Part shown: positions 1 through 54,089 of the stretch, piece by piece | Layout: the number at the start of each line of letters is the position of its first letter | How positions within the stretch are numbered: the first letter of the stretch is position 1 | Origin: Bugula neritina | Taxonomy: Eukaryota; Bryozoa; Gymnolaemata; Cheilostomatida; Bugulidae | DNA: 64,000 bases | Assembly (NCBI GenBank): GCA_964035545.1 | Contig: OZ037767.1 | Coordinates: 12,133,081-12,197,080 of the forward strand | Direction of reading: 5' to 3' | Translations under genes and position numbers: made by a program | The notes under the pieces: model-generated | What the model saw: the letters and a program-made list of their open reading frames with translations, nothing else | What the model was told of the DNA's origin: nothing | Databases searched by the model: none

Positions 1-188
1 AGCCAAATGATGAAATCTAATGCCAATTATACATAAAATATATTTCTAAGCACCTGTATTGAGCACAGTTGTGCTGATGCATACCTTTGGCCTAAAATGA
101 GATGCTTCAATGTAGACGTAGGCGTCACGATATTCACTCTGCAGCATATTGTGACTTTCAGTAACTCATTGCTAAGTTTGCTCTACAA

Positions 189-1456
189 GGATGCATACAT
201 ACATACTATACATACATACTATATATACATACATACTATATATACATACTCGTACATGCTATATATACATACATACTATACATACATACATACTAAACAT
301 ACCATACATACTATATATACATACATACTATACATACATACATACTATATATACATACATACATACCATACATACATACTATACATACATACATACATAC
401 TATACATACATACATACTATACATACATACATACTATACATACATACTATACATACATACTCGTACATGCTATATATACATACATACTAAACATACATAC
501 ATACTATATATACATACATACCATACATACATACATACTATACATACATACTCGTACATACTATATATACATACATACTAAACATACATACATACTATAT
601 ATACATACATACTATACATACATACATACATACTATACATACATACCATACATACATACTATACATACATACATACTATACATTACACACATACTATACA
701 TACATACATACTATACATACATACATACATACATACTATACATACATACATACTATACATACATACATACTATACATACATACATACTATACATACATAC
801 ATACATACATACAATACATACTATATATACATACATACTATACATACATACATACTATATATACATACATACTATACATACATACATACTATATATACAT
901 ACATACTATGCATACATACACACTATACATACATACATACTATATATACACACATACTATATATACATACATACTATATGCATACATACACACTATACAT
1001 ACATACATACTATATATACACACATACTATATATACATACATACTATACATACATACATACTATACATACATACATACTATATATACATACATACATACA
1101 TACATACATACTATACATACATACATACTATATATACATACATACTATGCATACATACATACATACACACTATACATACATACATACTATATATACACAC
1201 ATACTATATATACATACATACTATACATGCATACACACATACATACATACGTACATACATACACGCATACACACATACATACGTACATACATACATATAT
1301 ATATATATATATATATATATATATATATATATATATATATATATATATATATATATATGTATATATATATATATATATATATATATATATATATATATAT
1401 ATATATATATATATGTATATATATATATATATATATATATATATATATATATATAT
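189..1456. repeat. (CATA)n / TATACATACATAC array followed by (AT)n
   Basis: About 1.1 kb of tetranucleotide CATA repeat, regularly interrupted by CTATA or CTATATAT, passes at about 1294 into some 160 bp of nearly pure AT with two GTAT interruptions. It lies in the INTS5 intron downstream of exon 1684-1525. The long reading frames here (poly HTYI or poly IY) are repeat translations, not genes. Confidence 0.95.
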
Positions 1457-51800: not shown

Positions 51801-54089
51801 CTTCAATATATGTAAACCATGGCTACAGATATAAGAAAGAGTAGGTGGTTGATGACACTTACTGTGTAATAATTTCATCAACTCGACTGTTGATCTTTGT
51901 GAACAATTGAACTGGAGTAATGTTAGCTGGTGGCTTTGGAAATGACAGACATATTAACATGTGCTTCAAACATTCAGAGCAGGAAAGTTCCTATAAAAGA
52001 ATAAAGAGAATAACAGTTGCCAAAGACAAGCTGACTAGAAAACATTGCCTCCTTGCTAAATCATCGGCAGTCAGTTTCTTTCTGCTCGGATTGCTGCGTG
52101 AGTGCAGATAACCTTAGATCTTAAACTACAAATCTGTAATGTGGCCCTCATATTTTAGCAGAGTTTGTGTTGTAACTAAAAATATTAGGCAAATAATTTT
52201 TACCATCTAACAGTTAATTTACAGGCCAAACTTGCACTTTTTACCATTTGTACTCCTTTTCAGTATATAAACTATAAGCAACGCACTCAACAATTATGAG
52301 CTTTGCTTAGCATAGAATATATGTACAATAAAATAAACTCTATGCTACAGCTTACCATACAAAGAAGGATATTCCCAGTAAAAACATTACCTGAAGAAAA
52401 ACAAGAACTCAAGGGTACACTTTTTGATGTTTTGACCTGTGGCATTAGATATTTTTTAAAGTATACAAGAGTGAGAAAAAGCTTGAGGCAGACTGTCAAC
52501 CTGTCAACTTATAACAAGTATTGTTTGTGGCACTGCTAAGACTCCCTGGCTTTCAGGCTAGAACGTGGTGTGGTTGGCATATTTATTTGAATTGAACCAA
52601 TAAATATGAAATCAATACTTGGGACTTGGTTTCATAGTTTGAATCTACGGAATTTCAAATAAGAACTCAAGATTCACTATATCTTATCAAAACCATCAAC
52701 AAATACATACCCTGACTCCACATGAAAGCCACACATACCTTGAACATACTATATGAGCTGGTGGAGATAGTAATTCCATATACTCATTACCAATACATAC
52801 CGTCTTAAGCATTGTCTTAATAGACCCTTTCCGCATGTCCATTTAGAAGCATTTATAATTTGAAGCTGCCTCCTTCTGCCAGGTACAAGGGGAGCTTCCA
52901 TGATGGAAAGAAAGCACATGAAATCAGTAAAAATTTGAGGTTTGTGTAAAGACTATTGCTAGTATGAGTTTCATTTTTTGAGATAAATATTTTGGCACAA
53001 GCACACATATTAGCAGCTTCAGAAAGTTTTTAAAAATATTTTTCATTATTAATTGAAAAAAAAAATTCAAAGTATTTTTGTGGATTTGGTTATCAGCAAT
53101 GCTGAAACTGGCACCTGCCATATAAATCCCACTGATCATTTGTTTTGCTGATAACTAAAACAACAAATTTTTTTGAAGGTTTTTGTTTTAAATTTATCAA
53201 AAAAAGAGATTTTTCAAAAGATTTCTGAAACTGCTAATATGTGTGCTAGTGCCAAAAGATTTATCTCAAAAAATGAAACTCATACTAGCAATAGTCTTCA
53301 CACAAACCTCAAATTTTTACTGATTTTATGTGCTTTCTTTTCATCATGGAGGCTTTTCCTTGTACCAGGTAGGAGGAGACAACTTTAAATTATAAATGCC
53401 CCTAAAGGGACATATGAAAAGGGTCTATTATAATTAAATTGCAGTTAATTATTTTGTTAGATTTGTCTTGGAAAAGAGGGATAACTAAATTTAGCATTTT
53501 TATATACGCAATAACACTTTGAAAAGTCATCTTATAGAATTCCTTTTACTTGCCACCGCTATATCTTGATAAAATTGCTTACTGTTGATGCCTGCTGGTT
53601 TCTAACTGACTCAGTTGGTATATCCGTGTAATATAACTGAGCAGCTTGGAACTCTCCCAGTAAATAATCCAAGAGCAGCAGACAACTCTCACTATCTTGA
53701 AGTCTTTTCTCTACAGGCCCATTTATAAGCTCCTCATGTGGACAACCAAACTCTCTCAAGAATCCACTCAACTCCATTAAAAAACATTTAGATGCTTCTG
53801 CATCATTCTCAACTGAAAAAAGATAATAAATTGTAATGAAATCACAAACCATTCCTCCTTCTGCTCATTTTTAAACTATCATTAAGCACTATGTTATAAA
53901 TTACATAATAATAGATAACATAATGTTGCGAGTAATAACTGACCAGCAACTTGACCTACAGACTCCTGAATATCATAGAAGTCACATAATTCTTTGACTA
54001 GACGAGCTATCACTGATGTGTAGGTGATATTGGCTATGCCTGCCTTTATTATTTCACTAATTGTGTCACTGTTAAGGGCTCCAGTGTAA
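48859..54089 (-). CDS. FAM98A: FAM98 family protein (first exon not found)
   Basis: Human FAM98 proteins are found with the tRNA-ligase complex (RTCB, DDX1) and with PRMT1. Seven exons in matching phase: 54089-53944, 53812-53583, 51990-51863, 51365-51191, 49951-49775, 49639-49531, 48962-48859 (stop), giving 355 residues after an incomplete start. Diagnostic matches to human FAM98A as I recall it: 'CLLLLDYLLGEFQAAQ', 'PKPPANITPVQLF', 'MLCKRLDVTIQSFLWSDKAK', 'INKVLMGD' joined to 'VPDRGGR', and 'APPPEMPAFAKRQSGPGP'. The C-terminus is a short Gly/Arg-rich tail (GGKYGGGRGRVQGGW), much shorter than in vertebrates. The first coding exon must end in phase 2 and should carry the N-terminal residues; the 54.2-57 kb stretch gave no clear candidate. 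The symbol could equally be FAM98B or FAM98C. Confidence 0.93.
49952..50430. repeat. 37-bp minisatellite carrying the FAM98 splice acceptor
   Basis: About thirteen copies of a 37-bp unit. On the minus strand each reads ctgtatcattactctag followed by atacac. The true acceptor of exon 49951-49775 reads the same, ctgtatcattactctag, then GTACAC. The array thus repeats the acceptor and six exon bases with one change. Confidence 0.95.
50881..50975. repeat. 19-bp tandem array, five copies
   Basis: Unit cactattaccagtggtact, in the same FAM98 intron as the 37-bp array. The unit includes ccagtgg and ggtact, so each copy has AG and GT dinucleotides, but no splice use is evident. Confidence 0.95.
52818..53430. 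mobile_element. 613-bp foldback/MITE element, copy 1
   Basis: The left end taatagaccctttccgcatg matches the complement of the right end, taatagacccttttcatatg. Pairing continues inward for well over 150 bp through ggtacaagg and gcacacatattagcag. It lies in a FAM98 intron. The ORFs on both strands (52924-53139 minus, 53173-53388 plus) are the two arms of this palindrome. Confidence 0.85.

What the first reader, a model, noticed from the sequence alone, without database searches (positions are those of the whole stretch)
1..54089. Recurring pattern: tandem arrays anchored at splice junctions
Four arrays with unrelated units (31 bp, 23 bp, 37 bp and ACC) start within about 4 bp of a splice site in three different genes, and three of them include the site in every unit. 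This looks like junction-seeded duplication, which could lengthen introns or create new ones by tandem copying of AG/GT sequence. I know of no standard name for it; the link to intron gain is inference.
Basis: inference. Interest (0 to 1): 0.9.

Follow-up and report, generated by a model that had tools for sequence, protein, structure and literature searches.

The report
Tandem repeats that copy splice sites
Some introns in this animal-like genome begin or end in a long row of short repeats, and a minority of those rows copy the splice site itself over and over; the same oddity was described in amphioxus and named "mirages", so it is real but already known in kind.

Summary
The 31-, 23-, 37-bp and ACC arrays lie at inferred splice junctions of three genes (INTS5 twice, FAM98, a PDZ-like gene). 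Their edges are 9, 1, 6 and 4 bp from the junction; three carry the site in their units. A fifth, small case (28 bp x 2.3) sits at another INTS5 donor.

I tested it on 264 kb around the window (200 kb new) plus 50 kb of another contig. Outside the window, 8 of 85 intronic arrays contain their own donor (0.85 expected; I doubt three of the eight). Wholly intronic arrays start within 30 nt of a donor in 11 of 78 cases outside (5.0 expected, P=0.006; cut-off chosen after seeing the data). Acceptors show no significant excess.

87 of 100 arrays carry neither of their own junctions, and repeat coverage is lower at junctions than inside introns. So junction-derived arrays are a minority of a general intronic minisatellite load.

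[quoted passage not shown] Intron lengthening is visible in the anatomy; intron gain is not shown.

The parts
8699..10310 (-). Array A: 23-bp unit x69, 76 GTGAGT donor words, fills most of a 1792-bp INTS5 intron
10312..10400 (-). INTS5 exon upstream of array A; donor GTGAGTGAG begins at 10311
   Evidence: gap-free phmmer alignment across the junction; Pfam INTS5_N; gene finder
8356..8519 (-). INTS5 exon downstream of array A; its own donor (GT at 8355) lies in array E
8299..8363 (-).
5848..6220 (-). Array B: 31-bp unit x12 that includes 9 exonic bp and donor GTAAGT (GT at 6211)
6212..6326 (-). INTS5 exon upstream of array B; frame closes within the first array unit; missed by the gene finder
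   Evidence: weak collinear homology
49946..50426 (-). Array C: 37-bp unit x13 that ends at the acceptor of a FAM98 exon and includes 6 exonic bp; 12 TACTAAC and 8 CTCTAG words
49775..49951 (-). FAM98 exon downstream of array C
   Evidence: phmmer to FAM98B, gap-free; Pfam DUF2465
51191..51365 (-). FAM98 exon upstream of the intron that holds array C
36646..37560 (-). Array D: (GGT)305 on the coding strand, starts after 4 intron bases; unit does not contain the site
37565..38406 (-). Exon of the PDZ-like gene that ends at donor GTGAGG before array D
   Evidence: reading frame; sub-threshold Pfam PDZ in the same gene

Best explanation
These are 'mirage'-type arrays. A short segment that touches or spans an exon-intron junction was tandemly duplicated and then expanded as a minisatellite. 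Growth is tolerated when the outermost copy of the splice site stays next to the exon: the first unit at a donor, the last unit at an acceptor. All inner copies then lie in the intron, which becomes longer while the coding sequence is unchanged. They are a minority of a much larger load of intronic minisatellites in this region. Shown: the anatomy, the frame-keeping site in the outermost unit, and donor-side enrichment outside the window. Inferred: that duplication started at the junction, that the outermost site is the one used, and that expansion is by slippage or unequal crossing-over.
For: Junctions of A and C are fixed by gap-free homology. Own-junction test: own donor 14-mer found in own array at rank <=0.01 in 8 of 85 arrays outside the window (0.85 expected) and 2 of 15 inside; two other gene models gave 7 of 89 and 6 of 86 outside. 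Wholly intronic arrays start <30 nt from a donor in 11 of 78 outside (5.0 expected, P=0.006) and 13 of 91 overall (5.45 expected, P=0.0014). Donor-like words (PWM >=4) are sense-only in 10 and antisense-only in 2 of 19 arrays near donors, against 6 and 8 of 81 far arrays; at PWM >=5, 6 and 0 near, 4 and 2 far. A RasGEF intron outside the window (L026:7027-7232) has a 53-bp unit x3.9 with 30 exonic bp; its junction is gap-free against a solved RGL2. Read-through of A, B or C into or from the units meets stops, so use of inner sites would be penalised.
Against: 87 of 100 intronic arrays carry neither own junction. Repeat coverage is lower at junctions than inside introns. An edge test at +-12 bp gave 8 observed, 5.6 expected at donors and 5 at acceptors, neither significant. 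Acceptor own-junction counts are 2 of 85 outside the window (p=0.21). Of the 8 outside donor hits I doubt three (-81858 looks like an in-frame coding repeat, -81370 is in the same predicted gene, -69831 starts 1370 nt from its donor). The <30-nt cut-off was chosen after looking at binned data. Near-donor arrays include ones that overlap the donor, so the strand test is not independent of the own-junction test. A 50-kb sample of contig C1 has almost no arrays, so array density is regional. Most junctions in these tests come from my own gene finder, which missed exon B.
Confidence: 0.7

Rival explanations
1. Junction-blind minisatellites. Arrays arise anywhere in introns; purifying selection stops them at exons, so in short introns full of repeats some edges inevitably fall on splice junctions. 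No seeding by the junction is involved.
For: 16.8% of predicted intron sequence is repeat and 64 of 145 predicted introns hold arrays; coverage declines smoothly toward junctions; +-12 bp edge test not significant; GTAAGT ranks only 85 of 4019 words in array-like clusters, below many GTA/TAC words.
Against: Selection alone would avoid the junction, yet units include exonic bases and the donor; starts <30 nt of donors exceed uniform placement; donor-word strand bias is confined to arrays near donors.
Confidence: 0.22
2. The arrays are splicing regulators: rows of decoy donors or acceptors that bind splicing factors and tune splicing rate or alternative splicing.
For: 76 GTGAGT words in one intron and 12 GTAAGT in another; a C. 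elegans minisatellite is over-represented near multiple alternative splicing decisions (PMC4039745, passages seen).
Against: The unit sequences listed look unrelated to each other by eye; no conservation data; arrays far from donors show no donor strand bias at PWM >=4.
Confidence: 0.05
3. The arrays created these introns: duplicated AG/GT sequence became a new intron.
For: Known in principle: a potato gene gained an intron by a duplication crossing an intron-exon boundary (PMC4974935, abstract and section list seen); amphioxus authors propose it for mirages.
Against: Nothing here shows that any of these introns is new; array-bearing introns keep a median non-array remainder of 741 nt.
Confidence: 0.03

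Closest known systems
Amphioxus 'mirages' (Adh3, globin BflGb6/BflGb9, TnC, PGBD5)
   Same: Minisatellite-like tandem duplications of an intron-exon boundary, at 5' and 3' boundaries, with AG/GT signals in many units and unit lengths from 10 to 160 bp (PMC3087553 passages; PMC3902484 one passage).
   Different: Here up to about 70 copies (6 and 3 in the two BflGb6 haplotypes) and several cases in 264 kb; in A the repeated part starts inside the intron; D only abuts the site. Splicing was checked by RT-PCR there, not here. The organism here is unnamed; 215.8 Mb and about a third GC do not look like amphioxus (amphioxus values recalled).
[quoted passage not shown] potato RdRp case)
   Same: Tandem duplication crossing an intron-exon boundary, with reuse of existing splice signals (PMC4974935 abstract).
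   Different: No new intron demonstrated here.
Human introns from tandem arrays (Zhuo et al. 2007, seen only as a reference title)
   Same: Tandem arrays linked to intron origin, by title.
   Different: Content not read; nothing compared.
Splicing-associated intronic minisatellites of C. elegans (CeRep25B)
   Same: Minisatellites in introns near splicing decisions (passages).
   Different: CeRep25B is one dispersed family; here the units look different from array to array (by eye).

Membership tests
Mirage (tandem duplication of an exon-intron boundary) | Head-to-tail repeat of minisatellite size | tested here: met
   A, B, C, E: 23, 31, 37, 28 bp. D (3 bp) does not meet it.
Mirage (tandem duplication of an exon-intron boundary) | Unit spans the boundary (exonic and intronic bases) | tested here: met
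   B 9, C 6, E 8 exonic bp; RasGEF case 30; 90870 case 20 (and TRF edges; B by hand). A repeats the donor only from intron base 2, so it meets this only in part; D fails.
Mirage (tandem duplication of an exon-intron boundary) | mRNA splicing is regular despite the extra sites | not testable with these tools
   No transcripts held.
Mirage (tandem duplication of an exon-intron boundary) | Copy-number instability between alleles or cells | not testable with these tools
   One assembly, no reads.
Intron gain by tandem duplication | Intron absent from relatives and flanked by the duplicated sequence | not tested
   The genome has no relatives here.
Introner-like element | Same sequence family copied into many introns | tested here: inconclusive
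   Unit consensus sequences listed look unrelated by eye; no all-against-all comparison was run.

The most novel reading that the evidence does not exclude
Junction-derived arrays are a genome-wide, ongoing route of intron growth in this lineage, with a few percent of introns in array-rich regions carrying many tandem copies of their own splice site. Each would be a natural test of how the spliceosome picks the outermost of dozens of near-identical sites.
Probability: 0.35. Interest if true: 0.6.

Novelty: new member of a known kind. Interest (0 to 1): 0.45.

Why it matters
In the papers I saw, mirages are reported gene by gene in amphioxus. A genome where several sit within 264 kb, one with about 70 donor copies, would allow counting, dating and RNA-seq tests of two open points: whether tandem duplication at junctions is a regular source of intron growth and intron gain, and how splicing keeps to the outermost of many equivalent sites.

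Tried and rejected
Donor words in units against dinucleotide shuffles: GTRAGT in 16 of 95 arrays, 8.3 expected, maximum 15 in 200 shuffles; in 74 intronic arrays it was sense-only in 10, antisense-only in 3 (earlier gene model). Real but modest.

Genome-wide pattern counts (three copies of a hexamer with gaps 6-36, both strands, overlapping matches, not arrays): GTAAGT 24159 against 680 for the reversed word, GTGAGT 20987 against 12762, CTAAGT 2910 against 174, GTAACT 11592 against 765. I first read the 35-fold ratio as strong proof; one search showed that array words in this region favour GTA/TAC letters in general, so the reversed word is a poor control. Against the two one-letter neighbours counted, GTAAGT is 2- and 8-fold higher. 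In the 264 kb the neighbour GTATGT had more clusters (14) than GTAAGT (11).

TACTAAC in array C as a branch-site signature: rejected; the word is in the branch region of 2 of 139 predicted introns, 1 in the control stretch.

One training script failed. The first gene models called stop-free repeats coding; masking array interiors cured most of this. The finder agrees with homology at the A and C junctions, missed exon B and merged genes. In one search I added introns B and D by hand, which favours the pattern; omits them.

Position tests in order of running: +-6, +-12, +-25 bp, +-3 to +-25 with masking, coverage profile (51), binned edges (53, 56), <30 nt (80). With masking, donors at +-25 bp gave 16-18 observed, 9.8-10.7 expected, P 0.01-0.02 over three gene models.

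Papers: seven searches of the held library (one search listed 12 of 28). A nematode review (PMC9071541) holds the word 'mirage' once and was not opened. The 2002 Adh paper is not held (one search was a DOI guessed from memory).

Full report
What the window is. It is G000:C3:12133081-12197080 of an unnamed 215.8-Mb genome in 295 contigs, about a third GC. Genes met: INTS5 (minus), Rab9 (plus; phmmer E 2.1e-77 to Rab-9A), a PDZ-like gene (minus; Pfam PDZ 21.0 bits, under its cut-off) and FAM98 (minus). The organism could not be identified; the protein database query was not possible.

The four arrays. TRF confirms them. A: 23 bp x69 at an INTS5 donor; array edge 1 bp inside the intron. B: 31 bp x12 at a later INTS5 donor, with 9 exonic bp in the unit. 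C: 37 bp x13 that ends at a FAM98 acceptor with 6 exonic bp. D: (GGT)305 that begins after 4 intron bases of the PDZ-like gene; its unit does not carry the site. A and C are placed by gap-free alignment to solved INTS5 and FAM98B. B and D are placed by reading frame and donor word, with a stop just inside the intron; for B an upstream GT is not excluded by frame alone, and homology is weak. A fifth case, E (28 bp x2.3, 8 exonic bp), lies at another INTS5 donor; homology has a 2-residue gap near it.

Geometry. In B, C and E the unit includes exonic bases, and the site that keeps the frame is in the outermost unit: first at donors, last at the acceptor. Read-through meets stop codons in A, B and C. 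The same layout is predicted outside the window: a RasGEF intron (L026:7027-7232, 53 bp x3.9, 30 exonic bp, junction gap-free against RGL2), L012:8889-8958 (30 bp x2.3, 17 exonic bp), L028:6465-7101 (21 bp x30, 2 exonic bp), and acceptors at L014:3170-3374 and L015:6870-7103. Except for the RasGEF case these outside junctions rest on gene prediction only.

Is it more than chance? I fetched 200 kb around the window and 50 kb of contig C1 and trained a simple gene finder on all of it. It agrees with homology at the A and C junctions but missed exon B. In the 264 kb, repeats of period >=8 cover 16.8% of predicted intron, 7.9% of sequence outside predicted genes and 2.0% of predicted exon; 64 of 145 introns hold one. 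Tandem repeats of any period cover 1.5% of the C1 stretch against 14% of the 264 kb.

Test 1, own junction: does an array contain the 14-mer across its own donor better than the donors of other introns? Rank <=0.01 in 10 of 100 arrays overall (1.0 expected), 8 of 85 outside the window (0.85 expected), 2 of 15 inside; acceptors 3 of 100, 2 of 85 outside (p=0.21). Three of the eight outside donor hits are doubtful, leaving five. This test shows that arrays overlap junctions; it does not by itself show that junctions seed arrays.

Test 2, position: among arrays wholly inside introns, 13 of 91 start <30 nt from the donor (5.45 expected under uniform placement, P=0.0014); outside the window 11 of 78 (5.0, P=0.006). 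Acceptor side: 8 of 91 (5.4, P=0.16). The 30-nt limit was set after seeing bins. Other limits at donors, straddling arrays included: +-3 bp 5 against 1.9 (P=0.03), +-6 bp 5 against 3.2 (P=0.22), +-12 bp 8 against 5.6 (P=0.19), +-25 bp 16 against 9.8 (P=0.02).

Test 3, strand: donor-like words (PWM >=4) lie on the sense strand only in 10 and on the antisense only in 2 of 19 arrays near donors, but 6 and 8 of 81 far arrays. Over all 100 arrays this threshold gives 16 and 10 (p=0.16); at PWM >=5 it is 10 and 2 (p=0.02).

Array words here favour GTA/TAC letters in general, so raw counts of GTAAGT patterns in the genome are only supportive.

What it is. PMC3087553 (2010; first author Ebner, recalled; [quoted passage not shown] PGBD5 and TnC cases are noted in PMC3902484 (one passage). 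The globin authors say that mirages do not seem to interfere with regular splicing and propose a role in intron gain. B, C and E match that definition in anatomy, A in part; D does not. In the listings of seven library searches (one search capped at 12 of 28) I saw no paper that reports mirages outside lancelets, but I opened few of them and the library lacks most subscription papers; a two-copy boundary duplication is known in potato.

Verdict. Real, and named before; several cases in 264 kb. Intron lengthening is visible; intron gain is not shown. The open tests are RNA and a sister genome.

Noticed in passing
36646-37560: 915 bp of perfect (ACC)305 with no interruption, inside an intron; long and pure, worth checking against raw reads.
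   Followed up: no
37855-37990: 30-bp in-frame coding repeat (VDTVKPSPLT-like) whose DNA resembles tandem repeats at several places on C1 and C4.
   Followed up: partly
G000:C1:20000001-20050000 (L029-L033): Tandem repeat coverage only 1.5% against 14% around the window: array density differs strongly between the two regions sampled.
   Followed up: partly
20883-21154 and 21311-21723: Two large arrays in the last Rab9 intron, starting 72 nt after the donor and ending 30 nt before the acceptor.
   Followed up: partly
L011:4647-4793: 75-bp unit x1.9 overlapping a predicted donor with 35 exonic bp; possible early-stage duplication of a junction.
   Followed up: no
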